Source: Cliona cf. orientalis
Lineage: Eukaryota; Porifera; Demospongiae; Clionaida; Clionaidae
Assembly: GCA_963930775.1 (NCBI GenBank)
Contig: OZ005689.1
Location: 4,836,001-4,900,000 of the forward strand
Direction of reading: 5' to 3'
Length of the DNA stretch: 64,000 bases
Shown: piece by piece, positions 1,164 through 57,902 of the stretch
Numbering within the stretch: the first letter of the stretch is position 1
How the letters are laid out: each line of letters opens with the position of its first letter
Translations under genes and position numbers: made by a program
The notes under the pieces: generated by a model
What the model saw: only the letters and a program-made list of their open reading frames with translations
What the model was told of the DNA's origin: nothing
The model's database searches: none

Positions 1164-1175
1164 GTGTTATATGGA

Positions 1176-4099: not shown

Positions 4100-4920
4100 T
4101 GGAACGTTCAAGGGTGCCAACCTTTGTTGTACATAATACTATATGTATTGTATATGTACATGTAATTTTTCTTGAAAAATTTATTATGCTATAAGATTGC
4201 ATAATAATACGTGCATAAACATGTGACTAAAATAAAAACTAACACATAATTAATATATAAAATGATGTATAATTTTATTATAGCTGGATGTATGGAACTA
4301 ACTGTGAAAATTGCAAGTGTTGGGATGATGGGGCAACACCTAATTAAAGCATTATGTACTACATTACATTGTACATACGTACATCAATCTACAAACATAT
4401 TGTCATAGCTCTATATAGTCACCACTTCCTATTATAATCACCTTAATAGTATCATAATATTATACTTCCCAAACATGATATATAAGTTACATTATAGATA
4501 ACAAACTTGTGTTGCTCATAGTTTGTACAAAATTTATTATATTTACATAATCCAAAAGAGTACAAAAAAATTAAAAGGTGTATTCAGGAGATTACATGTT
4601 CATATTGCATTCCTACGGTGCTAACCTTTGTTGTATGTAGCTGTACGTATACTTATACGTATTGTACTATACATATAATTTCTCTTGAAAACTTTATTGT
4701 ACTATAAGGATGCATAATATGTGCTAAAAAACTAAAACAATATATAACAAAATCAAAGCTAGATGCATGGAGCTAACCATGAAAAATGGAATTGGTTACG
4801 TATTAATATTGCAAGTGTTTGGATGAAGGTTATACAAAATTATAATTACATAACCCAAAAGCAAAATTTAATATTAAAGGTGTATCCAGGAGATTTACAT
4901 GTTCACGTTGCATTCTTATG
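4100..4920. repeat. diverged direct duplication beside the kinase 3' end
   Basis: Two similar blocks lie in tandem. The block from about 4110 (AACCTTTGTTGTA, then TTTCTTGAAAAATTTATTAT, then GCATAATAATACGTGC) is matched by about 4620-4730 (AACCTTTGTTGTATG, CTCTTGAAAACTTTATTGTA, GCATAATATGTGC). The sequence at about 4575-4615 (AAAGGTGTATTCAGGAG, ACATGTTCATATTGCATTC) matches 4879-4918 (AAAGGTGTATCCAGGAG, ACATGTTCACGTTGCATTC), which abuts the kinase stop codon. The unit is therefore about 0.3-0.5 kb and derives from the kinase 3' UTR. Confidence 0.7.
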
Positions 4921-5883
4921 GCCCAGGATTATTTTTGAGTCTCTCTTTTTGTTTATATTCTTCAAGCAAGCTTTTGACACTTTCGTGAATAGTGACGGCT
5001 GCAGGACGCTTGTTCTTTTCCAATTCTGTACACCACATAATGGCACTCCTCAGAATATGTCGTTCGGAAAGCCTTTGAATCAATCCTCTGCGTTCTCTTC
5101 GTGTCACATATGGAATTTCATGTGTAATCTGTAGCATCAGCACGCCAAACATGTAAATATCAATGCTCGAATCGGATGAACCACAATCGTCCTGCAGTTC
5201 TGGTGGATAATACGCCGCTCGATGGCCATCGATAGCCGTCAGTGTAGTGCTCATTCCTTCAAAATCCTTCAGGATTCTAGACATACCAAAGTCAGAAACT
5301 TTCGCTGTTTTAACTGATTGATTGTCCAGTACGAGTAGAATATTATTCCCACATATATCACGATGCACTATTCTGTTTGCATGAAGGTAGTTAAGAGCTG
5401 ATGCTACATCACACGAAATCGATAGTTTAACTAATCGCTCCATGTTTTGATTTGGATGATTCTGGAAGTATTTAGTCAAGCTACAATCTAACCTTTCCAT
5501 AACAAGTATCGGAAAGCCCCCTTTGTGGTAGGATCGAACATCTAATAACCTCACAACATTTGGGTGATTGATGGTCATCAAGCAGCCGCACTCTCTAGTG
5601 AAGCTCTGAATTGCCTTTCTTTGAATGGGGTCATCAATTGGACCAGGGGGTAGGTCAGAAATCAAATGCATTGCAACCTGATTCAAAATCTTTACAGCAC
5701 AACTTTCATCCCTGAATTTTCCTTCATAGACGGTTGCAAAGGCTCCTGTTCCTAGCACCTTGTCAGGATTCGTCCAAAATGAGACGCTTGGTCCAGGGAG
5801 TACTACTTTATCTGGATCATTTGAGCCAGCTATGACTACCGATCCATTGTTCAGCTCATTTTGAGGCAAGTGAATATTGATGC
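4916..5883 (-). CDS. coiled-coil protein kinase, exon 3 (kinase domain)
   Basis: Last exon of a 639-residue protein (residues 319-639, stop at 4916-4918). It holds an essentially complete protein kinase catalytic domain. The glycine loop is L-G-T-G-A-F-A-T-V-Y-E-G (361-372), the ATP lysine lies in AVK (K382), the likely helix-C glutamate is E415, the catalytic loop is H-R-D-I-C-G-N-N (491-498), the metal-binding DFG is 515-517, and the APE equivalent is P-P-E (544-546). All catalytic residues are present, so it is probably active. The style (GxGxFATVYEG, HRDI, DFGMSR) fits the tyrosine kinase-like (TKL) group; I cannot say whether it prefers Ser/Thr or Tyr. The acceptor is TTGCTTGCAG before GCATC; it needs an upstream phase-1 donor, which exon 2 supplies. 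Confidence 0.88.
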
Positions 5884-5968
5884 CTGCAAGCAAGTTGCAT
5901 GATTACACCCACAGACGTAAATTATTTTGCTTGCCCATAATACATTTTTAATTACTACCGTACTTTCC

Positions 5969-14635: not shown

Positions 14636-14976
14636 TTACTCAACTACCACAATTTCTTCGTGACTAGACACCATCTGTGACCGTCGCATTTGGACATAGT
14701 TCCGTATGCTCCCGGCGTATCTGAAGGTCAGCCTCTTCCCGGGCACTTTGCTCATTATACCCTTAGTGTAGTAGTAGCGTAAGCCTATGGCAAGTTTCTC
14801 GTAGTTCATGCTCGGATTGTTTGTCACCTGACCCCACAGTTGGGCCACCTCCGTGGGGCTCTTTATTTGGAATTCAAACTCTCCCTCTGTCCACTGGATG
14901 AGATGGGTGTTGGCTGATATGAGAAGGAGCTCCAGCAAGAACTGCCATAACTGAAGCTGAGAGTGAGGGGCTGGAC
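14636..14976 (-). CDS. ETS DNA-binding domain, last exon (exon D)
   Basis: Encodes 112 residues with an ETS domain in the usual order: LQLWQFLLELL (helix 1), HLIQWT, G-E-F-x-F (sheet), EVAQLWG (helix 2), N-P-S-MNYEKL then GLRYYYTKGIM (recognition helix 3) and VPGKRLTFRY (final strands). ETS proteins bind GGAA/T sites in nuclear DNA. One oddity: most ETS domains have S-R-A-L-R-Y-Y-Y, with two invariant arginines contacting GGA; here the segment reads A-I-G-L-R-Y-Y-Y, so the first arginine is isoleucine. The acceptor ACCATAG/GTCCAG needs an upstream phase-1 exon, because the domain has no start codon of its own. Exon C (donor CAAG/GTGAGA, phase 1) fits and creates a Gly codon. The stop TAA is at 14636-14638. 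Confidence 0.85.
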
Positions 14977-15000
14977 CTATGGTGAAGAGGTAAGAGAAGG

Positions 15001-15015
15001 GAGAGAGAGATAGGG

Positions 15016-15108
<93 letters not shown>
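15001..15108. repeat. (GA)n microsatellite
   Basis: About 108 bases of nearly pure GA on the plus strand, which reads as (CT)n on the coding strand and ends 24 bases upstream of the ETS exon acceptor. It therefore occupies the place of the polypyrimidine tract. Confidence 0.95.
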
Positions 15109-15109
<1 letters not shown>

Positions 15110-15469
15110 ACATGAGTGAGTGATAGGGAGATTACACTTTCTACAACAAAGAAAAGTCCCATACATACACACGAAAACACAATGGGTATGGTGCAATATG
15201 AAAAATGATATCATTCAAAAATCTTCCTTGTGCAATTTGCTACTGGACCTAAGCACACAATATTTATCAAAACATGGTCAAGTTAGGTTGTTTCCTCCAG
15301 AAATGAAATGAAAAGCCCCCCCCTCCTTTATCTGGCCAAGCCCAAATAAAACAGTACTACCACATGACATGTACACATACACCACATTTCCTCCTAAAAT
15401 ATACCCCTGGCAATTACTGATAATTACCACTATATATAGGACTCCCTAGCCTCCGACCCAAAAATCATA

Positions 15470-15990
15470 CCATGAAGTGGGTGGATGTGAGTGAAATAGA
15501 AACTGTTAGTGTATTTCTGGTATCAAAAAACTTTCACAAATCCTATTTGGAAATTTTCATCCACATATATACATGTCTCCATTAAAATACCCCTGCTAAT
15601 GATCACAGCTATTTTTCCACATGGACTCTGTGTATACAGTGAGGGTGGATGTACGTAGTGAAAGGGAAAGTATTCATCAACCTTTTGGCTACATTTAGAC
15701 ATTTTCAATGTTCTGCAACAAAACTTGTAGCAATTCCACTTCCTTCATTCTGGCGTTTGCCTTGAGCTCCCGAAAATACCCCGACATTTGGAATATAGTC
15801 ATTTTGGTGTTCTCCACCAAAACTTGTACGTAGAAATTTCACTTCACGTTAAACTTTTCCACCGCTACTTGCCTCCCTGAAATACCCCGACTATAATATT
15901 TCACAGCAAATGATAGCCACTTTCTCACGAAAAACTGTACACACTTGTGCATTTTTTCACATACACAGTGAGGTGGGAGTAGTGAAATAG
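15470..15990. repeat. diverged tandem repeat
   Basis: Segments resembling GTGGGTGGATGTGAGTGAAATAG / AGTGAGGGTGGATG...GTGAAAGGGAAAGTATT / AGTGAGGTGGGAGTAGTGAAATAG recur, with intervening TTTTCCACATxxACxGTG and AAATACCCC motifs, at about 15480, 15640 and 15965. Copies are strongly diverged. Confidence 0.5.
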
Positions 15991-16849
15991 AAAAAGTATT
16001 TTTCTCCTCTCTCTCTCTCTCTCTCTCTCTGGGCTGGCTATACTACTTTTTAAAAACTTTCAAACTCACATTTTGGCTCTCGGCATAATTTCCCCCATTT
16101 GTTCCCAACTAGCTACAGAAAACCCTCACCATTACCGCAAATTACAAATATCTTCTCATGTGAATATACATAAGATCATACTGCTCTGATGCAAAGAAAA
16201 TGGGAGTATATGAAAGAGAAAATATTTTTGTCTACTTTCTGGAATTTACACAACTGTATACCTCTTATATCTTTCCAGAAAAATCCCACTAGATTCTTGG
16301 TTTTTGTAACTTTCATCTACTTGTCTCCACCGACGTCCATCCCCCTTCCCCCCACACACGGGTAAACAGTGGCAACTAGTGTCAGTAATCACAGGAAAAC
16401 CTCCTTCAATAACATTAACCCAGACACCAAAAAAGTGGCCCCAAAGGAGAACACAATCCCCCTAGTTCTAGACGATATAATAATATGGTATACTTTTAAA
16501 AACAGGCCTAGGGACTAACTTAAGTCTGTCAGAATGTTTCTATATGGAAAAAGTTGTTGATAAATCACCCAATGGTGCATGCCTCCATGCATCCTGCCAG
16601 TAGTGGCTAGTATGTATATCAAGTAATTGAGCTATCCCAAAATAAAATAAGAAATACACGCACATGCATACACACACAAAATACCAACTAAAGCAAATCA
16701 CTGATAATTTCTCAAAGAGAATCACTCAATCAAGCAAGACGACCTCTGACAATTATCGGTATAATCAAGATCATACCCTGTGCCCAAATGTTATCCCAAA
16801 CTAAGTTACACGTATTATTATACAGCCACTATAGCTACAGCCACTAAAT

Positions 16850-17150
16850 ATATTCTCAGATGAACTGTTTGCAACACAAATGAGACCTCCCCTATAATAA
16901 AGCGATAATCAAGAAGCCAAGTTTCCCCAAAGGTTGTTACAAAAGACCTAGCTATAGCTGGCTTCCACTATTGTAGGCCCCATTCACCCAATGCTAGAAA
17001 TACCAGCTAAAAATTTAAAGATAAAACCCACAAAAAAAAATATTCCCAGAGAAAACTGTTTGCAACACAAGCAGACCACCTCCTACAATAATGATAATCA
17101 ATACACCAATACAAGTTGTCCCAAACCCTTTTTTGGTTGCTACACGAAAA
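16850..17150. repeat. two-copy diverged tandem repeat
   Basis: ACTGTTTGCAACACAA...GACC...CCTCC...ATAATGATAATCAA followed by a CCCCAAA...GGTTG(T/C)TAC end occurs at about 16860-16942 and again at about 17050-17143. Confidence 0.6.
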
Positions 17151-17224
17151 TGGCTACTCACCACAAACAAGAAACAGTCAGTTACTTTAGCTGATCTCTC
17201 CCCCATCCCTTCCTCCCTTACAAT

Positions 17225-17770
17225 TTAAGTTAAAAAGTTTCCCAAGGAACGGACACTGTTTCATTGTGAATCTCTCTTTTTTATCCACTACTACGTGCAC
17301 ATGTACACCACAACTAAATGACTATAGTCACCAGAATCACAAACAATGGGTAAGTTCAGAATTTTCCCAATGAATAGACACTGTTTCATTATGGGTTTTT
17401 TTTTTGTCATTACTGCGTGTACACCAAAACTAAATGGCTGGTCACAACCAGTCGCCAGAAAGTCAGAAACAGTTGGTAAATCCAGCTAGGTCAATCCCCC
17501 CTCTCTTCCTCCTCCTCCTCTAAATAATATACTTAAAAATTTTCCCAGTAAATAGACACCGTTTCACTGTGTGCCTCTCTTTTTCTTCATTATATTACTA
17601 CACCAAAACTAAATGGCTCTAGTCACCATAAATAAGAAACAGTAAATCTCCAGCCAATTCCCTCTCCCCCTACAATAATATTTATAATAATATACTTAAG
17701 TAAAAAAAATTCCCAATGAATAGACACTGTTTCACTGTGGGTCGATCTCTCTCTTTCCTTCATACATAAA
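17225..17770. repeat. diverged tandem array, about four copies
   Basis: The motif TTTCCCAATGAATAGACACTG followed by TTTCA(T/C)T(A/G)TGGG recurs near 17235, 17365, 17545 and 17707. In between are CACCAAAACTAAATGGCT and AGTCACCAGAA...AAACAGT. The unit length is about 130-180 bases. Confidence 0.7.
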
Positions 17771-18449
17771 CACAAATAAAAGGCAACCATGCAGATACAG
17801 AAGCTTTACTAGGGGCTGGGGGCACCCATGGAATTACTGAAGTCGGTTAAAAATGAAAGGAAGACGTATAATATAGTGAGTGAAATATCCTTTAATGGAG
17901 AAGTACAGACGTCCCCCCCCCTCCCAGTCCAACTGATAAGGTTATCTTCCTTTCATAGAACACCACCTAACAACGAGAAGCTTTCTAATGAACCAAACTA
18001 GCAGTGAACAATTAAGGCATGTTGTTGTGGCAGTGCTTCTTACAACTATATTATATATAATAACTATTAATAACAATGCATGAAGACCTTCGCTTCGTAC
18101 ATGTACATGCAGCTGGTCCTAATTAAGGGATGTCACGAAAAGGCACAAGTTTGAAACCTTTCATTCCCCTATAGCTAGCTTCCTCTAGACACCCGGCCAG
18201 CACAAATTACTCAACAGAGGCTCTTCAATTGGCCAAGTTACAAACATGTTGCTAAACCAAATAATCACAGGAGTACACACACTCACCTGCATGTGGTTGC
18301 ACGCATGCACTCACACACGCACGAGCCAGGGAGAGGGGCGCCAAAATATTTTAAAATGAGATTAATCATCCACCCCCTCTTTCCTTCTCTGAATACCCAC
18401 TAGCTATGTACATGCATGTATCAGGAAGTCAGTCTCCCCAGAAGCACTC

Positions 18450-18912
18450 CATGGCACCAACAATTGATTCACTACTGATCAAAGGAGCACACACAATGAA
18501 TTAAAGCATGTTGACTCCCAAGGTGATCTCCCCAGATGAGATTATCATGCAGTTCTTATTCCTGCATGGGCACCCCTTCCTTCCTTTCTTTCTTCCTCTA
18601 ACTATACCCAAAGTTGAAATTGGTCATCAGAGAGAGAGGTAGATGTTACACAAGAAGAGGGGAGCTGGCGGACATACTTGTGGATGGTCTTGCCCATCTT
18701 TGGCATAAGAGCCAGCTCCCCGATCTCAGTATGAGTGAGATCATAACCTCTCTCCCAGTCTTTCCAACAATTGATTCACTACTGATCAAAGGAGCATACA
18801 CAATAACTCCCAAGGTGATCTCCCCAGATGAGATTATCATGCAGTTCTTATTCAATTCCTGGCATGGGCCCCGCTTCCTTCCTTCCTCTAAATACCCAAA
18901 GTTGAAATTGGT

Positions 18913-18945
<33 letters not shown>

Positions 18946-19085
18946 CGTTACATGAGAAGAGGGGAGCTGGTAGACATGCTTGTGGATGGTCTTGCCCATC
19001 TTTGGCATACAAACCATGCAGCTCCCTGATCTCAGTGTGAGTGAGTGAGGTCACAAACCCTCTCAACTTCAAAGTCTTTCCAAGG
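18450..19085. repeat. 308-bp tandem duplication
   Basis: CAACAATTGATTCACTACTG at about 18456 recurs at about 18767, followed in both copies by the same order of landmarks: AAGGTGATCTCCCCAGATGA, CAGTTCTTATTC, CCCAAAGTTGAAATTGGT, a GA run, GAAGAGGGGAGCTGG and GATGGTCTTGCCCATCTTTG. The second copy has an expanded GA run (18919-18944). Frames running through it are repeats, not genes. Confidence 0.85.
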
Positions 19086-20117
19086 CACATGCAGCCAATT
19101 TGTAGGAGGATAATGACATTGTATAACACTACTCTTGGTGTAGGCTGAAATTTTCAATTTTTACGTTGTTAAATTCTCTTAGGTACAACCCCCGTAACAT
19201 GTTAACGTTCAGCCTTCTTTTTTTTTTTGTAAAATCAATTTTTAAAGCTGCCGAGGCTGTTGGTCTGGTGTCTCAGTGTCTCAGAGAGCCATCTGATGGC
19301 TTCTTGGTGCTGAAGGGTAATTGGGATATTCTGACAAGGAAAGAGGAGGCAGGAAAATGGAGGTAAAAGTAATCTCATTATAGGCTAGGGGGACAGCGCC
19401 TTGGCGCTGCGGCGGGTGAATTGTATGTGCTCCTTTGATCATTGATTTACCAACTGTTTGAAAACTAAATAACCTTAGAGGAGGATGCAGGTAGTAGTGG
19501 TAGTAGTAGCTAGTACATGTATAGCCTCAAGAAGGCTTCCTAAATATTGTTTATTATGTAATTTGCAATTTTAATAGGAGAGCTGAGGGAAGGAGCTCAA
19601 AAATGCTAATAACTCTGACTCCATCTCCAGCTCAAGCTGAGACCATGCACAAACATTCACACAGTGAGTGTGAGTGTGAGTGGGAGAGAGCATTAATAGC
19701 TAATGAACCAAATCTCCTTTGTGTTGCAGAGAGGAAGGAAGGGGGTGAAATTACATTAGTGGACCAGCTCAGCTAGCTTATATATACACACTCCAGGGGT
19801 ATTTATATAGCATGGAGGGAAAAAGAAGAATAATATTATATTAAGACAAAGTTAGGAAGACATGATTATCCCATACCCACTCATGAATAGCTAAACAACT
19901 ACCTACCTGCCCAACACAAAGCATTCTTCCCCAGCCATTGCTCATGCACAAGCAAGCTGGCATAAAAAATGAATATCAAGCACAGGGTCAAATGTACAAC
20001 CTATAGGTACAATGAACCAATTAAACTGAGATAGGCGGAAAAGTTGATGTAATTAAGGAGGACCGCACAGACGTGACATACCAACAAGGATTTATCATAA
20101 TGGACACTTGGTCTCAC

Positions 20118-22568
20118 CTTGGTGGTCCTGCTGTTGCCCCGACGACCGGATAGCTCCGCCCACAATGTCCTCAATCTCCCTCTCGTCGATCTCCTCTGGG
20201 CTATTCTCCCGTATGATGTAATTGGAGTAGTGCGATGTCGTACTGCCACCGCCTCCCGGGCTGTGGCTCATGGCGTTCGGGCTGTGCACTCCGATCCTTC
20301 TGTGTCTTTCAGAGACTATCCCTCCACTGTTACCACTGCTGCTATTGTTGTGCTGAACTTGATGTACTTTCAGCAGGTGGCTCTGAAAAGCGGTGAGACT
20401 GCTCCCTCTCTGCTCCTGCGGTTGGGGACTGGTGCTCTTGGACTTACTGAGATGGCCGCCTAGCCCTCCACTGCTGGTATTCGGAGGGGAGAGCTGAGAA
20501 AACCTACTGCTATAGGGAGGATAGAGTACAGTCGTGTCGCTTGTCGATCTTTGCTTCTTGACGGACGGAGGTGTGACCGGTTCATCTTCTTCGTACTCAT
20601 CATGTGACACGGGGCTCACATGACCCCTCAGGGGGGAGTGATGTTGAAGGAGGGACGTCAATTTCTCGGGGACCGATTGGTGCCGTTTTCGACTTCCAGG
20701 CGAGACGGGACGATATTCGTAGCTCTCAGTTTCGTCGGACATGTCCTTACTGAGAGAGGAGGAGGATGAGGAGATGCTGTGAAGCGAGTTACGATGTCCG
20801 GTTCTCGAAACGGGAGCCATCAAGCTGCTCAGTTGAGGGAAGTTAGCTAAGGATACGTTACCACCACCAGGTGCCTGCTGCTGAGCGGAATTGGGAGGGG
20901 GAGGGGCATTGCTCGACGAAGATAATGAGTTCTCGGGAGAAGTTGAAGATGTGGTTGAGATGATATGATGGGGAGGTGGGGGAGGCTGGGTGATGATCGA
21001 CGGAGAAGGGGAGCCAGTCAGAGACGAAGTCTGCGAGGAGGGTGAGTTTGTTGAGGAGAGGGTAGAGGCTAGCATTGACGTGGTGGAGGACTGGGTTGGG
21101 GGGTTTAGGTTGGTGACAGAAACGGGGACGCCCGCGGGGGCAGGAGAGACCGTAGCGGCGCCGTTCGTCGACGGCACAAAATAGAGCACCTTCTGAGGGC
21201 TGGTCTGCTGCTGTGGAATGAAGTACGTGGCCGCAGTCGGTTGCCCTAGGGCATTGGTGACCTGTAGAGTAGGGGTATAGGGGTTCACGAAAGTGTACGG
21301 GGTCAGGAATGGGCTGTAGAACATGGAAGATGATCCAGGAGTCATGGTCGTGGCCCCTGCAGCCGTCGTACTAGCCGGGGTGGGGGCTATGACCGGCTGG
21401 GAGAAAATGAAAGGGTTTGCCCCAATTCCGGCAGCAGCGGGATTTTGTCCAAGGAAGCTCGGTGCCAGGAGAGTGGAGGTAGCGGCGGCACCAGGTTGAA
21501 TCCCATTGGCCGCTGCAGAGAGAGGATTGATCAAGCCCTGTTGGGCGGCGAGGGGATTGAAAAATTGAAATTTCAACTGCCCATGGTCCCCTCCGGCAGC
21601 TCCAAACTGCCGCATCAGCATTTCTCTGTGCATTCTCTCCACCCTCTTTCTCTCCCACTTGGCAATCTTTCTGTCGATGACTTTGCCGTAGGCCTGTGAC
21701 CATGACTGGTTCTCGTCTATAAAGAGCTCCTTTCTTCTCTCGAAATCCCTCTGCTTCAGGTAAGAGCCTGGGTCCGACTTTCTCCTCAAACTGACTATCT
21801 CGTTTCTGTTGTCCGAAATCACCAATTTTGTCTGGAGAAGGTTCTTGAGTGTTTTGGGGTCCGTCTGCATGCTCTGCCTCCTCTTGTACTGGTCGCAGAG
21901 AAGAGCCTGCTTGATGGCCGCATAGCTAGGTGGCTCTAAGTGAGGTGGAGTGCTGTGCATGTGTTCAGCCAGCTGATGTAGAGTAGCCTCGGCCTTTTGA
22001 TCATCGGTGAAGGCCACGGCCGGCTTCATGTTGTGAGGAAGGCTGCACCGCCGATTGTACATGTTCTTCGAAAAGCCGGGAGGGGCAAGAAGGCTCGAAT
22101 CATCGATTGAGAGGTGAGGATGTTTAGCGGAGGGCTTCAGAATCGAGGGTGGACAGGGGATACCGTTGATCATGACATTGCTACCTTGCTTGACACGGAA
22201 CTTTGTCACGGTATAGCGAGGAACCTTCTTGTTCATGGCCTTGACGGAGGCAGCTGAAGGAGGAGGAGAGGGGGAGGTAGAGGAGAACTCCTCCTTGATT
22301 TGAGGCACCAAAGTGCTCGACTTGCTTCTCTGTGACTTGGGATGGGGCCTAAAGAGGTGCGGAGGCGCGGAGAGGTTAGGGGTGAGGGAGGAGGAAGAGG
22401 AGGAGGAGGGGGAAGGTGTGTGGTGAATGGTAGGGATGACAATGGGTACAGGTGGTGTCACGGTGGTGGTGTCGGTGTCCATAGCTTCACCGCCCGTCGT
22501 GTCTTCAGCCAGCTGGGGCGCTTCGCTCAGGACTTTGGAGAACTCACCGACTGCAGGGACTTTGGTTC
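20118..22568 (-). CDS. large regulatory exon upstream of ETS domain (exon C)
   Basis: A 2451-base exon, residues 438-1253 of the joined model. The frame is open from acceptor CTCTCCATAG (22569) to donor CAAG/GTGAGA (20117) and phase-compatible at both ends. An internal ATG at 22482 (reading MDTDTTTV) could be the start if exon C begins a separate gene. Most of it is Ser/Pro/Thr/Gln-rich and probably disordered, as in transcription-factor activation regions. A conserved-looking block follows the first 85 residues after that ATG. It contains three basic phosphosite motifs, RRCS, RRQS and RRKS (positions 144, 201 and 233 from the ATG), and ends in a basic helix (residues of about 245-293). The rest contains alanine-, glutamine-, proline- and serine-rich runs. 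I recognise no named domain. Its link to the ETS exon rests on the phase match and on both needing a partner. Confidence 0.75.
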
Positions 22569-23317
22569 CTATGGAGAGAGGAGATGCAAGGAGAGGAGAA
22601 GAGAGAGGGAGGTAGGAAAGAGAGAGAAGAGAGGGAGAGAAAGAGTGAGGGTAGGTAGAGAGAGAGTAAGGGAGAGGGGGAGGGAGGGAATGGGAGAGAG
22701 TGAGAGAGACAGAGAGAGAGCAGGAGCAAGTAAAAGCACGAGTCTAGAGAGAGTGCGTGTGATAGATTAATTAGCTCTAAACAGAGCTACAATGGGAACT
22801 GCGCATTACTTACATACCAACTTAATGGATCAGCTACATACTCAACAGCTACACACACACACACACACACGTACACATATACATACACCTAATAATAATA
22901 ATAATTATCGCATCTAATAGAAAATAAGTTTTTGCCAGCCCAAACCGCAGGACAGGAAGCTGGCACAGTCACAGTCACGTCTCACATAGACTCTATAGAG
23001 AATGGACTGCTGTTTGGAGAACGTGCTAGACGCAACGTCTCGTTCCTCGTATTATTGTAATCAATTACAGCTGTGAGTTATTGTACGCACGTCCGGCCGG
23101 ACCACTGGATAAAAGATGTCAGTCGATACAAGTCAAGGAAGCGGGGTTGACACGAATCGTGGGTGTCAATTAAACTACAATCTAAATCTGCTTTTGCTCG
23201 AGTGCCATACTATAATTGTAACAAAATTAATTTTTAGTTGGTCCAAATACACGTAATATGATATACATGTATATCTGTACAACCACTTGAACAGAAGGGC
23301 TCTACAGGCTTCAAGGG

Positions 23318-23405
23318 GTTCCCTACACACTAGCCAAATTAGCCATTTGCTGCTGTATCCTTCACTTTGCTACTCTCTGGATTAAGTAGCCACTAGCACT
23401 TCTGC
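23318..23405. repeat. dispersed repeat, copy 1
   Basis: TTCCCTACACACTAGCCAAATTAGCCATTTGCT...TATCCTTCACTTT...CTGGATTAAGTAGCC recurs at 28197-28290 in the same orientation, with an insertion in the middle of the second copy. Confidence 0.7.
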
Positions 23406-25849
23406 CATTACAACCTTCTTTTAATGTCAGCAGTACAAGTGATCACCAATATCTTTAAGAAATGGCTACTAGGTTTTGTAAGCTTTGCTAACCACTACAG
23501 GACAGCATACGATAGTATTGAGTGTGCACACATATTATACATGTACACAAGCAAGCTGTAGCAATTTGAGAACATGCTGAAGTGGCAATTTTGCTACACG
23601 TATCAGCAAATTTAACAGTATGCTCTTTGTATCAGCTACAAATAGGAATTACTAAACTTTGCTGACTGGCGATACTGCACATATTATGTCGCAATCTGCC
23701 TGGTTGCCAGGGAAACAGTGTTGGCACACCGAGTGATAGCTACAGTCATGTACATATTAGTCCGATCGCCTGTCACTACAATATACGATACAAATTTGCA
23801 CTAGCACGTGAAGTACAACATGTACAGTGTTCATTGACTGCATATGCATGTGCACTATACTATAGCTATACAATCACACTGGCGTACTCACCATACCCGA
23901 GCTTAATTGGAGCATTTTATTGAACAATGCGCACGCTCGCTCTAGGTACACACATACAGACGGACACACATGACCATGCATACATACATACATACATTCT
24001 TAAGTATTACGCTTAGTGCACATGCATGTAGTACATGTATACACATGTATGCATGCATGTACCCAATTATTATGATGACATGCTCTTGATACACACACGC
24101 ATGCAGACGGACATACATAAAAAGGTAACATGAGAGTATAATATACTAGCAGTGAACTTTTGCACACATAGCCACACTGCTTAGTGTGCACATACCAATT
24201 TTAATATAATATGTGAGGAACCAGGAACTGTGTTGCATGTTTCTAAGAAAAGTTAGTTAGCTATCATAGCCCATCTTTGCTAAGTAAACAGAAAAGAGTT
24301 GAGAGCTTTACATAGGGACATACCACACACTTCACACTCAATTGGCCTCCATATTCCCACCTGAATAGTGATGATGTCATCACATTAATTAATGAGGATG
24401 TCACCAGGTCTCAAAAAGCTTACATGTATACTAATTAGCCATTAAGGACAAAAGTCTAACATTAGGGGCTAATGTTGTGTGGCATCACAAATCCACATCT
24501 TGCCAAAAAAGGATTCTAGGGCAGTTCCATACTCTTTGACCACAACAGCCAGCAAATGCTGTCTAATGAAAAGATCTGAGTATTGCAGAGCCTACAGGTA
24601 TGACATAATTTGGAACTTACCAGTAATTAGGGGATTTGGTGGTAACCTTAGGCCTCCAGGTAAAACCACATGTGGGCCAGGGGAGCCTGACTCAAAAAGC
24701 CACAGTGGACACCACAGGGGAAACCTCAGGGGAGACATGTACAGGGGACACCCACCCCAGTCCAGCCCAGATAACATCATGTCTGGTAATTAATGTAAGT
24801 GAATCCCCCTAGGCCTACCCCCTATAAGCTTACCCAATATCAAACCATTAATTTCATTAGCAAATAAATAAGCAATAATTAAGGAACTTGTAGCCATGCA
24901 GTCTGATGGGTGCTTCAGAGTGGGCCATGGAGGGACCTACACCAGTACCACAGGTCACATCGTATTATCATGTTTAATTTGAATCCCCTTAATTACTCCA
25001 ATATCAAACCGCAAATAAATTAATTGACTTGTAGTGGGTCTGATTGGTGCATGGGTCCGACGGAGTGGTCTAGTCAAGAGTCTGCCCACTGGGTTGTCCC
25101 TTTCCTGACTGAAATGTAAACTTATATTTTCCTCAAAAAAAACACCATACCCATCCAGTGATTAATTCAAATCGGATGTTTTGTGCCATAGTATCTTATG
25201 TATACTTGAGAAATTCTTGGGAGGTCTAGAGGAAATCAACTTTAGGGATTGAAAATACCTGTGCTCCCCCCCCCCCCCAACCACCCCCTAAATAAATCCA
25301 CCCTTTTCTTCCTTCTGTCTAGATTGGGATGTTACCTATAATCTGATGCAATAAACAGCTACAGGAGTGAATACTATAGGCGCCAAAAACAACTACCCCC
25401 ACCTTCCACCCACTCTCTTACTCCCCAATAAAGGGGACTTGTTTCAACTTTAAAGGCATACCTTAATTATTCCCCACCCTCCACCCTACACCCACTCAAT
25501 CTCACAGCTCATTAGGTTAAAGAGGGACTACCTTAACTATAATTATACACATGTTGTATGTTCTCACCTTTAATTCCACCCACTCCTCTCTCTCTCTCTG
25601 AGTAATCACTACTTGTTAGAGAACTGCCAAAACAATTTCCCTCAAACCCACTCACAAACCCTACCCAACTAGTTCCTCTCCATGAGCAACTACTACCTAA
25701 ACTTAACGCAACCCCCTCTAACCCCCCCCCCCCACCCACTTTTCTTCATAGGCTGTTAGAAGGCTAATTCAGTTAACCCCTAAAAAGCACATACACACAA
25801 CATACACTGTCAATGTATAACCAAAAGGTTCTCAGTTGCTATCTGCATA

Positions 25850-25979
25850 GAAACAAACGAAGATTCTCCTGCAGACTGTGGATACCTGGCCTTAGCCATT
25901 AATTTTGGTAAACTTGCCGACATTATTTCAACTAGATGCTCTAGTCAATATTAGTCCAGAAAGAATCTTCGTTTGTTTC
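25850..25979. mobile_element. MITE-like palindromic element
   Basis: GAAACAAACGAAGATTCT at 25850-25867 is inverted as AGAATCTTCGTTTGTTTC at 25962-25979. The interior includes ACTAGATGCTCTAGTC, a motif shared (in inverse orientation) with elements at about 35880 and 36740. There is no room for a transposase, so it would be non-autonomous. Confidence 0.7.
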
Positions 25980-27607
25980 GATTTCTAATACACAACCTCC
26001 CAGTTCGTACCACCAGTTTAAAAATCTGATGGATCTCGGGTGCATTCAAGTTAAGTACATGTATCTATACATTATACGCATGTATATTATGTACATATAC
26101 TCATGTACATACAAGACATGTACATGTATGTTATGCACACATACAAGACAGGTACAATGCATCTGGCTCGAAATGCATGTGAGTACTCTCTCTCTCACTA
26201 AATCACAACATGGCTCGATCTAGCTAGCTACGTAGCTGGCTGGCTGCACCCGGCCGGGACATTAATGTTCATGAACATGACCTTGGGACAGTTAGCAACA
26301 CGACCTACATGTACAGTACATCATGTAGTACATGTACATGTACATTAGCGATTGTGCTCGATCGCTACACTTGACTATAACGCTGCTCCATACACATATA
26401 CATGAACGTAGGGTCCATTAAGAGGACGGTAGTCTAAGGTAGGTAATTTATTATTAGCAGCTAATTACTTGTGACTGGAGGGCAAGAATTCCCCCTCTGA
26501 GTACAGTGCTCCCACACCCACCCACTCACTGCCTGCCCGACTTATTGAGGATCAATGGAAGACCCCATTAAGTAAACCATCTTCAAAAGCCGGCCGATAA
26601 CACCCTCACGCTCACACACACACATACGCACACGCGTGCACACACACAACAGCCAAGAAACCTACGTATATACCCTCAGGGCCGTGCCTAAGCCCTTTTG
26701 ACTAATACACTTACAATTCATGAAAACTCAGTAGGTTTATCTTCTGCTATCGATGTACTCCAAACCTACATGTAAGGGGTAACCATCCCTTTGCCTGCCC
26801 AGGCAAACCTAATCCTAGCAAAATGCAGAGTCACTTACATAGGTAGGTGCCTAGCCTTGAGAATTAGGGGTGGTATGGTTTTACATTAGGCAGATTTTGA
26901 GCCACTAGCTAGCTTGCAGCATGCATGATGCAACACTTACATATATATGTGGGTCTAGGGTTGGGGGCATAGTGTCCTAATTTCTGCTAGGAATGGAATT
27001 TTATGATTTAAACTGAAGAAGCCCCTCATTTGATAAACAGCATGACCTTCCGTGATCAAATAAGCACTCAGTACACAATCGAGATTCAATGTTGTGGCTA
27101 TGAATATCAGGGCCGTATGGCCGTATGTCACCCAATGACATAATGCACCGGATGACAATTAAAGGAATGGAATTTCACGCTGTAGATTTTGGAAATCAGG
27201 GCCATACGAACGATAATTGTATAACAATAGATGATCGCATGGAGTTGGTGTATATGATATCGTATGTTTTCGTTTGTCAGAGGCTAGCTAGGGGGTATTA
27301 ATTAGCAGACACTGATGTATATAGTGTATGAGGCAATCCAGTGACTATTGCGCTATGGGAAGAACTCTCAGTACCTATACACCATGACTACACCAATTCC
27401 AAGTTTGGTGCTTACATGCACTGAACTATAGGATGACTTTTCTTGGACTGAGCAGTCTACGGTATAATTTAATGATTTCATTTCGACTTAGACAAAGCTC
27501 GCCAGGGGATACCAGGAACATGAACAAACATTTTACGGTATCTACGCGTATACGATACATTACATAACCTCACTGAAGTTAACAAAGTACGGAAGTTTCT
27601 TCTCCAG

Positions 27608-27855
27608 TCTAGAAGCAGCAAGGATGACGTTCCTTTAGAGTGAGCAATAACATAACAATGTCACTATATCTACGTAAGTCAACATGCATGGGATAATACT
27701 TCTATCATATCTAGAAGCAGCAAGGATGATCGATGTTCCCGTAGACTGAGCAATAAACAGTATCAATGATGTCACTATCATATCTAGAAGCAGCGAGGAT
27801 GATCGATATTCCCGTAGACTGAGCAATAAACAGTATCAATGATGTCACTATAATA
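27608..27855. repeat. three-copy tandem repeat
   Basis: TCTAGAAGCAGC(A/G)AGGATGA followed by GTTCC...TAGA(C/G)TGAGCAATAA and AATG(A)TGTCACTAT occurs at about 27608, 27712 and 27782. Copies two and three are nearly identical, with a period of about 70 bases. Confidence 0.85.
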
Positions 27856-28196
27856 ATATTATCGAAGTCAATACTCAAACAAAATTAGTAGGACAATACA
27901 AACAACCTTAAGCATGATCTATCACATCATTTGTAGTGGCTGGAGGAGGAGGGGAGGAGGGGGCAGGTGGATACCAGTTGAGGCACTATAGTGCTAAACC
28001 CTCGGTGCAAGTGCACTGAGCAGTATTGCTGCAATGCATGCATGTCCAAAATTGTGACTAGTATTGGTTCTCTAACTATACCCAGAAATGACGATGTTTC
28101 TCTGACTACCCAGTAAATGTTTTTAACGTCATCAATATCACTTCCAAGTCACATAACCTAGAATAAGTATGATCTTTTGGTGTGCTAGCTATATAG

Positions 28197-28290
28197 GGTT
28201 TCCCTACACACTAGCCAAATTAGCCATTTGCTACGTACGTATACTCTAGCTATCCTTCACTTTACTAGTCCCTGGATTGAGTAGCCATTT
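28197..28290. repeat. dispersed repeat, copy 2
   Basis: Second copy of the segment described at 23318-23405, with an insertion after CCATTTGCTA. Confidence 0.7.
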
Positions 28291-29092
28291 TTGTCATTGT
28301 TTCCTTTTGGCTCTACAAGATTTTTAAGCTTCAGAACTCCAGGTTCACTTTTCTACGTATCTAGAAACTTAACGACAAGAGCTAGGGGTCGATTCCTAAC
28401 AGTGACTATTAATTATGGAAATGTGGCTTTACATGAATACTTAGAAGGAAGGTGTGTATGACACCATGAGTAATCTCAACTTAGAATTCTTATCTGGCTA
28501 AGCTTTAAAGGGTGCTACTGATACCATGGGATGGACGCATTGGGTAGTAAAAAAAATAATACATAGTTCCAATGTTTAGTGAAGTCTAGCCTGGAGCTAT
28601 TTCTGGCATTGTGTTACCAGGAACAAGTAATGGGATGCACAAACAATGCCCTATCCAAACGCCCTAGTGGGATATTTACAGAGGACATCACGCCAATTAC
28701 TGTCATGCATCAATGCATGAACATGAGTAGAGATGACGTCATCCATCCCAGGGGATTCCCCCATGCTGGTTTCCCCCTCGCCCTGGCCTCCTCCACCTAA
28801 ACAAATGTAAATTTCCTTCACATGCTCCCCCACCGCCTACCCACGATATGATACCCCGACACATTCTCAAGTCTTGAGGATAGTAAGAATGGGAACAAAA
28901 TGAATTCTGGAAAACGATACTAATTCAAGGAAAATTACACAATACTATACAAAACCACAGAGAGAGTGGAATCACACCTCAACACAAAATTACAGCACTA
29001 TGTTATTACCCTTCTAATGAAAAGCCCAGTCCCTGCTAGTCAGTGTTTCTCTCTCTCTCTCTCTCTCTCTCTGCTAGACTAAGTTTTCTTAC

Positions 29093-29410
29093 CAGATGAT
29101 GGCTTTCCTCGCAGCCAAACAAACGTTCCGCTCTGCATGACAATCGCCAGCAGGCCCTTTCCGAGTAGCATCTCCTTCTCCTCTTCAAAAAGCCACACCC
29201 ACAAGTCACGGATTTTCGACGAGTCGACACGTATGCACACAACGCTGAGAAAGTGGCCCTTGTACATTGCCGAGCTGACGAGTGCAAAGTTCACTCCAGG
29301 GGTATTGTACATCATCCTGGAAATTTCGATGGCCCCCTGTTTCCCGGGAACGAGGAGACCCAGCATCTGGTTGTCTTTCAGCTCATAGGAGGGAAACTCA
29401 ATCTGACGCC
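29093..29410 (-). CDS. exon B, unrecognised 105-residue domain
   Basis: Internal exon of 318 bases (residues 332-436 of the model) between acceptor ACCTACAG/GGCGTC and donor TCTG/GTAAGA, phase 1 at both ends. It joins exon A in frame (T + GG makes Trp) and exon C in frame (G + GA makes Gly). The protein is compact, alternating hydrophobic and polar, with predicted strands (LLVPGKQGAIEI, FALVSSAMYKGHFLSVVCIR, GLLAIVMQSGTFVWLRG) and one amphipathic stretch. It looks like a folded alpha/beta domain, but I do not recognise the family. It is flanked by CT-rich (upstream) and GA-rich (downstream) sequence on the coding strand. Confidence 0.72.
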
Positions 29411-31516
29411 CTGTAGGTGTAGGTGCAGGTGCAGGGGAGGGTGGGGGAGAGAAAGAAGAGAGATAAAGATTTGATGGTGTTGTGTTTGATATGGAGGATG
29501 AAGCTGATTTAGCTTTGTATGGCTCATTAAAGCTATGCTCTCACTCTTTATTGTTCTCAATCTGTCTCTCTCCCCCTCCCTCCCTCCCTCCCTCCCTCTC
29601 TCTTACCCTCTTACAAGCCTATGCATAGGCACACATGAGTAGGAGTATTTCCTCATATCCACAGGCTACCTGACTATGGCAATATCTACTTGCCAAGAGG
29701 GGGAAGAAGGAGGGGGAGGAGGGGGAATTATTGTAACAAAAAAATTGAAATATTAGACTAAGACAGGCTTCCTTCTCTTGCAGCCACTTCCAAGTAATCC
29801 CTTTCATCTCCGAACACCAAGGAAGGACGCAACTCAAAATTGTTACTCCAATATCATTGCCACCCCCCACACATATACAAGCTAAGGCAGAAATCAAATA
29901 TTAACAAACAGCTTAGTACGTAACTCCAGGATAAGCGCCCATGCATGCATGCACCACATTTTAAGGAATCAAGGCAGTGGCTTCCAGGAAACACACCCCG
30001 GTAATTATAGGTAGCCAAAATAGCAAGTCATGTCGAAGCATTCATGGGTGCATGCTCACCTCGCTTACCTGGGACACTAAAGGAAAGCCATTAAATTCTA
30101 ATAAATAAAAGCTCCATAATTGTAATAATAATTACAGCCTTCTACACTTTTAATGAATGAATTCCTCTGTACACTGACACCTGTATATACACCACCTTGC
30201 TGCCGCCATAGTGGGTATTCCCACGGGAGCAGGAAGGGGGAGGGGAGAGAGGGGCTCGACCTAATTGGCAAATAATGAACCTAATTATCCTAATTAACAT
30301 ACTAGTCAAAAGTAGAGTCGGTCGGCAAATCACGTCCGTCCGGCCGCAAAATTACATTCCACGCATTTCAAAGATTGTGGACCACAAGTGGATAATAATT
30401 AGAACAGCCATAGCAATACATTTGTGACGTACGTACATTGTAGATCCACAATCAAGATTAAATTATAAAATGCTAATATCTATTGTACATACACAAACTA
30501 TATAGAACATACCAGAAATACGTATGTGAAGAGTATCTACTATAGTCCGTGACATTCGATCGGATTTTAGATTTTGAAGATAAAACTTGGTGGCGGTTCA
30601 AATATATAGACTACTGAATTTCATGTGCCAGTGCCACGTAAGGGGATATAGACAGAACCATACGTATGGCTTTACAGATTGTACGTCCCCCTCCGATGCT
30701 GATTTTGAAAAAAAATCCACAAAAAACGCCACATTTTCATGATGTGACACATGTACACAACCTTAGTGTAGGAAACCAGGTAACTAGGAGTTATATAACA
30801 CAAATACTGGCGGAAGGTCAGTCAACTTTATACTTCAAAAGGCCGGAGGGAAAGGGGAGGGGAGGGGGGGCTTACGATTCTATTGGTCGTTAGAGATACA
30901 TGTACTATACATGTACTAGCTAGAACTTTGCAATGGCAAAAACAAGTGAAAACTGTTACATCTTTACAACTTTAGATGTCTGAACTACAGTAGTCATGGG
31001 CATGCACGTACATGTAGTACTTAGGATAGTACGTATGGGGTGCCAAGTGGGTCAAAAATTTAATGATCCCCTTCTAATTACATAAACAGATTTAGCTAAA
31101 TATCTGTCAGGTTTATAATATTATTGGCCAGCGGCAAATTGAACATGAGGCAGGCAGGCAGACAGATGAGATGGAAATGAGGTAAAGTGAGGGCACTCCT
31201 TCACCACAAGGCTCTTTGAAGGGAACCTTTCAACTAAAACAAACTCAAAGACCACAAATCAGGCGACACTCAAAAAGCAATTTCAGGACTACCAGGAGGT
31301 AATAGGGTAAGAGGGCCACAAACCTGTATTTTGTAATATTCATGCACTAGCGATAACACAGTGTTGAATATTGGTTACTCCAGAACCCTGATTGAGCACT
31401 GGGCCCATTGTTTGTGCACTTTTGATTGACCTTTCAGTGACCCCTTTTAGAGTAAACAATAACAGTACTATTATCTTTCTCTCTTTATCTACTATCTCCA
31501 CTCAGCGAAGTGCATT

Positions 31517-31557
<41 letters not shown>

Positions 31558-32581
31558 GGTGGGGGGATGTACAGACACTGACAGAGAACACACACACATC
31601 ACATCACACCACATACAAAGAAGGAAGCACTAGAGGGAAAAGGTAAAAAGGGAAAAAGCTTCAATAGAGCTTGGCAACAGAGCTCAGACAAGCCCTATCT
31701 TTTGAGGCCCTCAAGATCTGAGTGTCTGACTGCTGACATGGTACATAAGCCAGTACAAAGGGCTCAGCAGAAGACCAGCCAGAACACTAGCTTTAGGCTA
31801 CACAGCTAATTGCACATAGAGTACTGGTTGCCAGGCGCCGTGGTATGCAAACCAAAACCATCAAAAGAGAGCCCAAGCCATACTGCTTACACTGGGCATA
31901 CCAGTCAGCGCTCAAGTCACGTCGGCAACCCACGCACAATCAATGATTACGTAACCGCCGCGCCCCGCGCGGTGACCTGTTGACCTTTTGAGGGTGCCCT
32001 TTTGCACCCAAATACTAACACTCTGATCTGGCTAATGAGCTGGTGATTTGTAAAAAGCTTTTACACCTTTTGACTTGCTAGCTGGGAAGGGCAGTGTCAG
32101 TTCTTGTCCAACAAAGAGGGGACAGTTGTAGCTTTAGTTGCACCTCTGTGCTTACTGTAGCAGTTTTCTCTTTTCTTTCATGAAAAAAAAATAACTTTGC
32201 TCAATACCCCAAACCACAAAATATACACAAGAGAGGTTGAGATCACTATAGGGATGTTGAACTTCCACAAGGCTTTTCCATATCAAACCCATAACTACAT
32301 CACACAAAATAATAATTATACAGTTCAGTCATTTCATAAACACTAATGAATTAGCTGGCAACAGTCAACCACAGCACCTTCAAAGGATGTCACTAGCATG
32401 CATCTCCTGCTAGCTAAACCAATAGCAAACCACCAATTAGATCCCACAGCACACAGAATAGCAATTTAATCAAAATCCCTAATTCTGAACACATACCCAG
32501 ATCATAGGGTAACTAAAGCATACCTACACACATGTCATACATGTATCATAGGAAACATAATTCCTGACTTTAATCACTTAC
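29411..32581 (-). other. intron between exon A and exon B
   Basis: 3.2-kb intron with donor CTGT/GTAAGTGA (32581) and acceptor CCTACAG (29411), preceded by a CCACCCTCCCCTGCACCTGC pyrimidine-rich tract. It includes a (GA)n tract at 31519-31554 and a copy of the GTGTCCCGGGTAAGCGCCCATG family at about 29925-30080. No exon is recognised. Confidence 0.65.
31519..31554. repeat. (GA)n microsatellite
   Basis: About 36 bases of pure GA on the plus strand inside the A-B intron. Confidence 0.95.
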
Positions 32582-33572
32582 ACAGTGAGATGCTGCTCTC
32601 TGCCATAGGACAGAGCACTGAATGGACTGGTCTGTGAGAACTCTTCTCACTACTGTCTTGCTCAAGGGAAGTCGATGACGATGATAGTGGTATCGAGGAG
32701 ATGAGCGGGAGCCCAGAGTCTAGCTTGGAAGACGATCGAGTGAGCGGGAGGTGGAAGGTGTGCTGCTTGTTCTGATGACGCTGCTCTTCACACATGAACT
32801 CCTTGATGAACTGACTCACGAGCGGGTCGGTTGGGTGCGATTCACACCCTATCACAACTGAGTGTCTCTCTTGGAAAAGCAGCTTGAGACGCTCGGCGGT
32901 TGGTGGTCGGACGTGACTTGGGCTCTCGTAGAATTGGCCATCGATTTTCACAGTATCTGGTTCCCAATAGACACCGTGAACGTGAAGAAATCCTGCTTTC
33001 TCACCTTTCAGCCATTGCTCGAGGCCATCAGAGTCCTCCAGTAGGACTGGTGTGGTTCGTGACACCCTGCTCAGAATGTCGTCACAGTGTACGTAGATTA
33101 GCAGAGCCCCTTTGCTTTGCAGCTCAATGATGCGCCCGAGGCTGACAGAGTGAGGCGCGAGCGCCAGAATATGCGATTCCAGCTCGACTTCAAACGCCCT
33201 CCTCAGCCACTCGGCGTACTTGCCCGCCTGCTGCAGGCTCATGGCGACTTTCTTCAGGGCAAATTGCGGGTCTAGCTCGTAGGCATTCCGATAGAGATGT
33301 TCACACTTCGCTCTCTCCGTGTCGTTGGAGTATTCTTCGGCGTCCAGTAGTACACGTATGCCCTCGTCCACTATGTGCTTGAGCGCAAAAGATGGTGTCC
33401 TTGGCGACTTGCCAGTGCGCCCATCTCCCTGGAAATCGGGGTGGTTGCTGCGGATCGAGAGCTGGTGGGCTTCCGAGAGCTCGTTGATCACGCTGGTGGT
33501 GAAATCGGGACCAATCACCAGTAGAAATTTACTTGGATCGATCTCCAGGCAGAGATCGAGTTTCGAAACCAT
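32582..33572 (-). CDS. FAM118/SIR2-like domain, first exon (exon A)
   Basis: Starts at ATG 33572 (context AGGAGAGATGG) and encodes 330 residues plus one base. About 270 residues match the SIR2-like fold of the FAM118 family: nucleotide-binding start LLVIGPDFTTSV (17-28, where classical SIR2 has GAGIS), GALLIYVHCDDIL (155-167, the TTNYDxLL position), FLHVHGVYWEPD (195-206, with the H-x-H-G motif) and SVVIGC then DPLVSQFI (about 237-255). FAM118 proteins are relatives of bacterial antiphage SIR2 NAD-hydrolysing enzymes. Here the asparagine of TTNYD is not conserved, so NAD cleavage may be lost. A Ser-rich tail follows. The frame stops three codons past the end (TGT AAG TGA), but a consensus donor CTGT/GTAAGTGA lies inside that end, in the phase required by exon B, so I treat it as a splice. 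If unspliced, the protein would be 332 residues, about the usual FAM118 length. Confidence 0.8.
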
Positions 33573-57480: not shown

Positions 57481-57902
57481 TGTTGTAGCTAGTGATAATT
57501 AAGACAGCAATTAACCTTTTGCACCAAATTTTCGCCTACCCTGATCGAAGCTGTATAGGGTAGTAGGGAGTACCTGTGAATTCATTGGGAAACTATCCAA
57601 TGCCAATTGCTCGGTTTAATTACCCTTGTGGAGTCTTGTGATGTTTTTCCGTCGCTTCCTGCCGAATCCAATCAGGGTTCAAAGGTCGTCCACGCCAGCT
57701 AGTGTGAAGTCAGGCATGCATATAAATTACTAGCTCTTGATATTCCATTGCTATCCTGCATGCTGCTATGAGGAATGTGCCCTCAGGCTGTTATTGTAGC
57801 TAATTAAGCTTGCATATACATGCAGATCTGTGTTGCCTAGCATAAGTTGTAGCACTTCTATACAAGGCCTAAGATTTTTTTTTTTTCATAGAAAAAATCC
57901 CA

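What the first reader, a model, noticed from the sequence alone, without database searches (positions are those of the whole stretch)
14636..33572. Possible SIR2-like/ETS chimeric protein from four phase-1 exons
Seen: four minus-strand exons (A 32582-33572, B 29093-29410, C 20118-22568, D 14636-14976) have consensus splice signals; every junction is phase 1 and the total is exactly 1367 codons. Exon A is FAM118/SIR2-like and D is an ETS domain. Known: ETS domains pair with PNT or disordered regions, and I know of none joined to a SIR2-like fold. Inference: one gene would tie an NAD-binding or immune-type fold to a DNA-binding domain. The weak joint is B to C, because exon C has an internal ATG (22482) and could start a separate ETS gene.
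Basis: partly seen in the sequence, partly recalled or inferred. Interest (0 to 1): 0.85.

Follow-up and report, generated by a model that had tools for sequence, protein, structure and literature searches.

The report
Sponge SIR2-like/ETS fusion gene family
This animal genome, probably a sponge's, seems to carry three related genes that each join an immune-type NAD-enzyme fold to a classic animal DNA-binding domain, a pairing that suggests gene switches controlled by that fold, although no RNA yet proves that each set of pieces is one gene.

Summary
New: the arrangement occurs three times. Two other places on the same contig carry, in the same order and strand, a SIR2_2/FAM118-related exon, a ~100-residue exon B, a long low-complexity exon C and an ETS exon, with open frames of 1396 and 1434 residues; all 10 junctions can be read as phase 1. 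Exons A are homologous (tblastn 6e-24, 3e-8, 1.5e-13), exons B too (0 of 5000 shuffles); exon C is matched only by place, length and phase. None of four PNT exons found lies in these loci.

I read this as a new ETS transcription-factor architecture (one gene ~0.75). The SIR2-type domain keeps FAM118B's His and Asp but lacks its Asn in all three, so regulated assembly or ligand binding is likelier than strong NAD cleavage. The window copy's ETS lacks one recognition-helix Arg. Against: no RNA; in two of three loci an unspliced exon B would stop 2-4 codons past its donor, so two co-duplicated genes remain possible.

The parts
32582..33572 (-). Exon A: start codon plus SIR2_2/FAM118-related domain, ends in a phase-1 donor (TGT|GTAAGT)
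   Evidence: paralogues at C1:5944838-5945699 (+) and C1:5784850-5783647 (-)
32976..32978 (-). Codon of His199, equivalent of FAM118B H206; kept in 3 of 3 paralogues
   Evidence: codon checked; alignment A1, FAM118B alignment, residue role from PMC12700824 section 21
33087..33089 (-). Codon of His162, which stands where FAM118B has the active-site Asn (N163); Gln and Tyr in the other two
   Evidence: codon checked
32826..32828 (-). Codon of Asp249, equivalent of FAM118B D255; kept in 3 of 3
   Evidence: codon checked
29093..29410 (-). Exon B: ~100-residue domain without a known family; phase-1 acceptor and phase-1 donor; unspliced it would stop 4 codons past the donor
   Evidence: low-confidence model, pLDDT 57.8
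20118..22568 (-). Exon C: 817-residue low-complexity stretch with basic clusters; phase-1 acceptor and donor; first in-frame ATG at 22482
   Evidence: homology with the exon C of the other loci not shown by sequence
14636..14976 (-). Exon D: ETS domain and stop codon
14786..14788 (-). Codon of the Ile that replaces the first Arg of the ETS recognition helix (KLSRxLRYYY reads KLAIGLRYYY); Arg in the other 9 of the 10 ETS domains found in the genome
   Evidence: codon checked

Best explanation
Exons A-D form one gene, one of three paralogues, that encodes an ETS transcription factor of a new architecture: an N-terminal SIR2_2 (FAM118/SIRal-related) domain, a ~100-residue domain of its own, a 775-817-residue low-complexity stretch, and a C-terminal ETS DNA-binding domain. 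Shown here: the exons, frames and phases, the threefold recurrence, the family matches, the kept and lost residues. Inferred: that they are spliced into one mRNA. Most likely mechanism (inference): the SIR2-type domain controls the ETS factor by self-assembly or by binding NAD or an ADP-ribose-type ligand, as ETV6 uses its polymerising PNT domain (recalled) and as FAM118B forms filaments, so that many ETS domains are gathered on DNA when the fold assembles. With the active-site Asn gone in all three, strong NAD cleavage is unlikely. The window paralogue, which lost one recognition-helix Arg, may bind DNA weakly or differently and act as a partner or brake for the other two.
For: Three loci with A-B-C-D in the same order and strand. 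Open frames of 1366, 1396 and 1434 residues, 10 of 10 junctions readable as phase 1. Exon A homology 6e-24, 3e-8 and 1.5e-13; exon B 0 of 5000 shuffles in each of three pairs. Of the SIR2-type exons found in the genome, 3 of 3 full ones have an ETS exon 17-36 kb downstream (end of A to start of D) on the same strand; chance per exon about 0.07 within 38 kb even inside the ETS-rich part of C1, limits chosen after seeing the loci. In a comparison of open stretches of the three loci (E <= 0.01), the window locus shares A, B and D with the others and nothing outside these exons. No PNT exon in any of the three loci, 4 found elsewhere. The three ETS domains lie on one side of a branch (92/93) when the long-branch ETS of contig C2 is left out. 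3 of 3 exons A match SIR2_2 at E <= 0.1; profile to FAM118B 1.9e-9.
Against: No RNA evidence. A pair of neighbouring genes duplicated together would give the same linkage. Unspliced, exon B would stop 4 codons past its donor in the window and 2 codons past it in locus 2 (55 in locus 3), so B could be a last coding exon in two of three loci. The comparison did not detect exon C either, so it cannot rule out further low-complexity or short exons; it also gave short matches (at most 34 residues) between loci 2 and 3 outside the exons, on both strands. With all ten ETS domains in the tree the three are not one group (10% of bootstraps; AU p 0.24, neither shown nor rejected). Exon C is not shown to be homologous by sequence (131, 42 and 1 of 500 shuffles reach the real score). 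7 of 20 splice sites rank only in the top 5-20% by the recalled weights, 6 of them in loci 2 and 3, and I chose the boundaries there in knowledge of phase 1. Two of the three genome searches for SIR2-type exons missed locus 2, so further copies may exist. Nothing tests assembly, ligand binding or DNA binding; the model of exon A is unusable (pLDDT 39).
Confidence: 0.67

Rival explanations
1. Two neighbouring same-strand genes, a SIR2-like gene (A and B, ending in the stop just past B's donor or in an unseen last exon) and an ETS gene (an unseen first exon, C, D), duplicated together. The proteins act separately.
For: Unspliced, exon B would stop 4 codons past its donor in the window and 2 codons past it in locus 2. 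Exon C has an in-frame ATG near its start in each locus (residues 29, 16 and 17). B-C distances vary widely (about 6.5, 3.4 and 20.7 kb). 7 of the 10 ETS exons found are on C1, so local duplication is common there.
Against: In locus 3 exon B stays open 55 codons past the donor. The donors of B in loci 1 and 2 rank in the top 0.7% of GT sites, which a last exon would not need. C can be entered in frame with B at phase 1 in 3 of 3 and is open from acceptor to first ATG in each. No shared first or last coding exon was seen between B and C, within the limits.
Confidence: 0.22
2. One gene by alternative splicing: A-B-C-D is one of several products, with B and C skippable because all junctions are phase 1, and with short SIR2-B or ETS-only products. 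Not exclusive with the best explanation.
For: All inner exons are symmetrical 1-1 and can be skipped without loss of frame; exon C has its own ATG; stops lie just past the B donor in two loci.
Against: No transcript evidence either way.
Confidence: 0.3
3. The window copy is a decaying paralogue: its ETS domain has lost DNA-contact residues and it does little. Not exclusive with the best explanation.
For: Long branch of its ETS (0.78 and 0.74); Ile for the first recognition-helix Arg and changes in the loop before it.
Against: 1366 codons open, including 2451 nt of exon C, with splice sites in the top 0.4-5.5%; SIR2 and B domains recognisably conserved.
Confidence: 0.12

Closest known systems
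Human FAM118B/FAM118A (SIR2_2 sirtuins, 'SIRal'; PMC12700824, PDB 9r3e, 9r0p)
   Same: Same SIR2_2 fold by profile (E 1.9e-9); His206 and Asp255 equivalents kept in 3 of 3.
   Different: Human proteins carry no ETS (recalled); the paper calls the FAM118 clade vertebrate-specific and names N163 as an active-site residue, which is H, Q or Y here; here the domain is joined to exon B, a low-complexity stretch and ETS.
PNT-ETS factors such as ETV6/TEL and ETS1 (architecture recalled; ETS1 and ETV6 chains listed)
   Same: An N-terminal domain, a disordered middle and an ETS domain; in ETV6 the N-terminal domain polymerises (recalled).
   Different: A SIR2_2 fold stands where PNT would be; no PNT exon found in the three loci.
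Bacterial antiphage SIR2 proteins (ThsA, Dsr1/2)
   Same: Same SIR2_2 subfamily according to PMC12700824; weak PADLOC matches of one of three paralogues to LmuA (7.7e-4) and one to Dsr1 (0.078).
   Different: The window copy has no PADLOC match up to E 1; active-site Asn lost; DNA-binding domain attached.
YAP1::FAM118B fusions in tumours (PMC12700824 discussion)
   Same: A FAM118-type fold attached to a regulator of transcription, proposed there to concentrate it.
   Different: A tumour rearrangement, not an inherited three-gene family; YAP1 is a co-activator without a DNA-binding domain (recalled).

Membership tests
ETS transcription factors | Full ETS domain (PF00178) | tested here: met
   1.4e-29, positions 1-80 of 81
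ETS transcription factors | Two Arg in the recognition helix that read GGA (role recalled) | tested here: not met
   Window copy has one of two (KLAIGLRYYY); loci 2 and 3 have both
ETS transcription factors | Binds GGA-core DNA | not testable with these tools
   no assay
PNT-ETS subfamily | PNT domain upstream of ETS | tested here: not met
   4 SAM_PNT exons found in the genome at E <= 0.001, none inside the three loci
SIR2_2 (SIRal/FAM118-related) sirtuins | Match to the SIR2_2 profile | tested here: met
   3 of 3 paralogues at E <= 0.1, best 2.8e-5; window copy 23.0 bits vs cut-off 24.5, 24.4 or 24.7 with its neighbours in the genome scan (which missed locus 2); FAM118B profile hit 1.9e-9
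SIR2_2 (SIRal/FAM118-related) sirtuins | Active-site Asn, His (and Asp in FAM118s) | tested here: not met
   His and Asp kept, Asn replaced in 3 of 3
FAM118 clade | At least 41% identity to human FAM118s, vertebrates | not tested
   Definition from a passage of PMC12700824; identity over the whole domain was not computed; the single-sequence match is weak
SIR2_2 (SIRal/FAM118-related) sirtuins | NAD processing or filament formation | not testable with these tools
   no assay

The most novel reading that the evidence does not exclude
Sponges own a family of at least three transcription factors in which an immune-type SIR2 fold, stripped of its enzyme Asn, senses NAD or an ADP-ribose signal, or assembles on it, and thereby switches an ETS domain: a direct metabolite- or infection-to-gene relay in one protein.
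Probability: 0.25. Interest if true: 0.88.

Novelty: new variant of a known kind. Interest (0 to 1): 0.74.

Why it matters
ETS factors are an old animal family whose usual partner domain is PNT (recalled), and SIR2_2 domains are known from antiphage defence and, in vertebrates, from Toll-like-receptor signalling (as told in the discussion of PMC12700824). A conserved join of the two would show a route by which an immune effector fold became a controller of gene expression early in animal evolution, in an animal that is not a vertebrate if the host is a sponge. The three paralogues make the idea directly testable: two have an intact ETS recognition helix, one has lost a contact residue, and all three share a changed SIR2 site.

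Tried and rejected
Structure: single-sequence AlphaFold of exon A was unusable (pLDDT 39.2) and was not searched. Exon B gave pLDDT 57.8; Foldseek against the PDB found nothing at E <= 0.001; the best is at 0.027, and many of the 50 rows shown are small ferredoxin-like or PII-like folds, with unrelated ones among them. Kept only as a hint. Exon B as a profile had no PDB match up to E 10 and no Pfam match better than 0.065.

Relatives elsewhere: pattern scans of genome contigs and of IMG/VR with the exon A alignment, and of IMG/VR with exon D, confirmed no relative among 35, 38 and 2 matched stretches. These scans rest on a few short peptide patterns. No eukaryote collection is at hand, so other sponges could not be tested.

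Literature: FAM118+SIR2+sponge gave 0 papers; 'ETS domain' with 'SIR2 domain' 0; at least three of SIR2, ETS domain, fusion protein, Amphimedon gave 2, unrelated by their listing; at least three of ETS transcription factor, sponge, Amphimedon queenslandica, domain architecture gave 154, of which 20 were listed and none opened. Searches (4 papers; 43, of which 20 listed; 2) led to PMC12700824, of which I saw the abstract and outline, passages, and sections 21 and 23. 'Not in print' therefore holds only for these searches of one open-licence library.

Species: of 52 papers on sponge or related genomes (15 listed) I opened one, Eunapius fragilis (passages of PMC12616128), and rejected that species because its longest scaffold is 24.99 Mb while C1 here is 37.5 Mb. 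Two searches by assembly size gave nothing usable.

It left out the stops just past the B donors and the failure to see exon C. For the stops I lowered one gene from about 0.8 to about 0.75, the best explanation from 0.70 to 0.67, and raised the two-gene rival from 0.18 to 0.22. Claim of a shared exon C: dropped for lack of sequence support. Claim that the three ETS form a clade: kept only as conditional.
Full report
What was checked. The window is G000:C1:4836001-4900000 of a 216.8-Mb assembly in 149 contigs. The four minus-strand exons are present as described: 991, 318, 2451 and 341 nt, total 4101 nt, 1366 residues and a stop, no internal stop, each junction phase 1. Exon D is an ETS domain (1.4e-29). 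Exon A is SIR2_2/FAM118-related: 23.0 bits against a Pfam cut-off of 24.5 by itself, FAM118B at E 0.0035 by itself and 1.9e-9 as a profile of three paralogues.

The arrangement occurs three times. A genome search with exon A found itself and C1:5944964 (+), and PF13289 found the same two; a search with the second copy found both, the third copy in two pieces between C1:5783753 and 5784340 (-), and a 42-residue fragment at C19:2608173. The third copy was first seen by tblastn on fetched pieces. Since two of the three genome searches missed it, and only the best candidates are scored, further distant copies cannot be excluded. The genome search shows 10 ETS exons at E <= 0.001, 7 of them on C1. 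Each of the three full SIR2-type exons has an ETS exon downstream on its own strand: the window pair; locus 2, A 5784850-5783647 to D 5766953-5766637 (-); locus 3, A 5944838-5945699 to D 5982047-5982690 (+); the gaps from the end of A to the start of D are 17.6, 16.7 and 36.3 kb. Between them lie an exon B and a long exon C, which in locus 3 is split in two. Spliced by hand the genes give 1396 and 1434 residues with no internal stop.

How strong is it. Exon A: tblastn 5.9e-24 (loci 1-3), 3.3e-8 (1-2), 1.5e-13 (2-3). Exon B: each of three pairwise scores exceeded all of 5000 shuffles. Exon D: 54, 58 and 66% identity between the three. Exon C: 131, 42 and 1 of 500 shuffles reach the real score, so its equivalence rests on position, length (817, 775 and 805 residues) and phase. 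All 10 junctions can be read at phase 1, but I chose the boundaries of loci 2 and 3 with that in mind; by consensus weights recalled from memory 12 of 20 sites rank in the top 2%, one at 2.6% and seven between 5% and 20%. The chance that a random point in C1:4.3-6.0 Mb has an ETS exon within 38 kb downstream on its strand is about 0.07, so about 3e-4 for three (limits set after seeing the loci). This speaks for common descent of the pair and does not by itself separate one gene from two co-duplicated genes.

One gene or two. For one gene: in 3 of 3 loci exon B has a phase-1 donor near the end of its conserved part and exon C a phase-1 acceptor in the matching frame, open to its first ATG (residues 29, 16 and 17); the B donors of loci 1 and 2 rank in the top 0.7% of GT sites. 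An all-against-all comparison of open stretches of at least 20 codons (E <= 0.01, low-complexity filter on) shows that the window locus shares A, B and D with the others and nothing outside these exons; between loci 2 and 3 it also shows short matches (at most 34 residues), many on opposite strands or repeated, which look like interspersed repeats. That comparison did not see exon C, so it could also miss another low-complexity or very short exon. Of four PNT exons found, three lie upstream of other ETS exons on the same strand and none inside the three loci. Against: no RNA; a non-coding first exon before C would not be seen; and read on without splicing, exon B stops 4 codons past its donor in the window and 2 codons past it in locus 2, but 55 in locus 3, so B could be a last coding exon in two of the three. 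I put one gene at about 0.75.

The SIR2-type domain. PMC12700824 (section 21 read) gives H206, D255 and N163 as active-site residues of FAM118B. From the printed alignments H206 and D255 match window H199 and D249 and are the same in all three paralogues; N163 matches H162, Gln and Tyr. I counted chain positions of 9r0p with an offset of 20 residues, inferred from the chain length of 371 and a recalled protein length of 351, which puts N163, H206 and D255 on the expected letters. The first Gly motif reads VIGPD, VIGPQ and VLGPQ in the three; that it normally reads GxG is recalled. Loss of the Asn in all three suggests that strong NAD cleavage is not what was kept. The paper's view that the FAM118 clade is vertebrate-specific is not contradicted: these look like more distant SIR2_2 relatives.

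The ETS domain. In the window copy the recognition helix reads KLAIGLRYYY where FEV, ETS1 and the other nine of the ten ETS domains of the genome have Arg at the Ile position. That the two Arg read GGA is recalled. Its end branch is the longest of the nine rows when the C2 row is left out (0.74). In the tree of all ten the fusion group is not one side of a branch (10% of bootstraps; AU p 0.24); without the very long C2 row it is (92/93, 89% of bootstraps).

The host. A pattern for a silicatein-like active site (recalled) hit five places, control 0. Two of them, on C12 (3671715 and 3674578), have Ser in place of the catalytic Cys and lie inside Peptidase_C1 matches; two on C19 lie inside Peptidase_C1 matches but do not have Ser there, and one on C17 lies in none of the matches listed. 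Two such exons speak for a demosponge. The species was not identified.

Mechanism. Shown: anatomy, recurrence, family matches, residues. Inferred: one mRNA. Proposed: control of an ETS factor by assembly or ligand binding of a SIR2-type domain, by analogy with FAM118B filaments (PMC12700824, abstract and sections 21 and 23 read) and with ETV6 (recalled). Nothing here tests assembly, ligand or DNA binding.

Noticed in passing
G000:C19:2608173-2608298: A 42-residue stretch 74% identical to the start of the locus 3 exon A; the search with the whole exon matched no more of it there: probably a partial copy.
   Followed up: partly
window 1146-3860 (+): Open frame of 904 residues with right-handed beta-helix and Chlam_PMP repeats and, by eye, a membrane span near its end.
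   Followed up: no
window 4916-5902 (-): Protein kinase domain in one 328-residue open frame (PF07714 3.6e-32).
   Followed up: no
G000:C12:3671715 and C12:3674578: Two Peptidase_C1 exons with Ser for the catalytic Cys (silicatein type); two C19 hits of the looser pattern lack the Ser.
   Followed up: partly
G000:C1:4373204-5164305: Four PNT exons, three of them upstream of ETS exons on the same strand: ordinary PNT-ETS genes of this genome.
   Followed up: partly
window 29094-29408 (-): Exon B is an unnamed ~100-residue domain, seen so far only in these three genes; a low-confidence model suggests a ferredoxin-like order of elements.
   Followed up: partly
window 57902-57975 (-): tRNA-Phe gene, anticodon GAA.
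   Followed up: no
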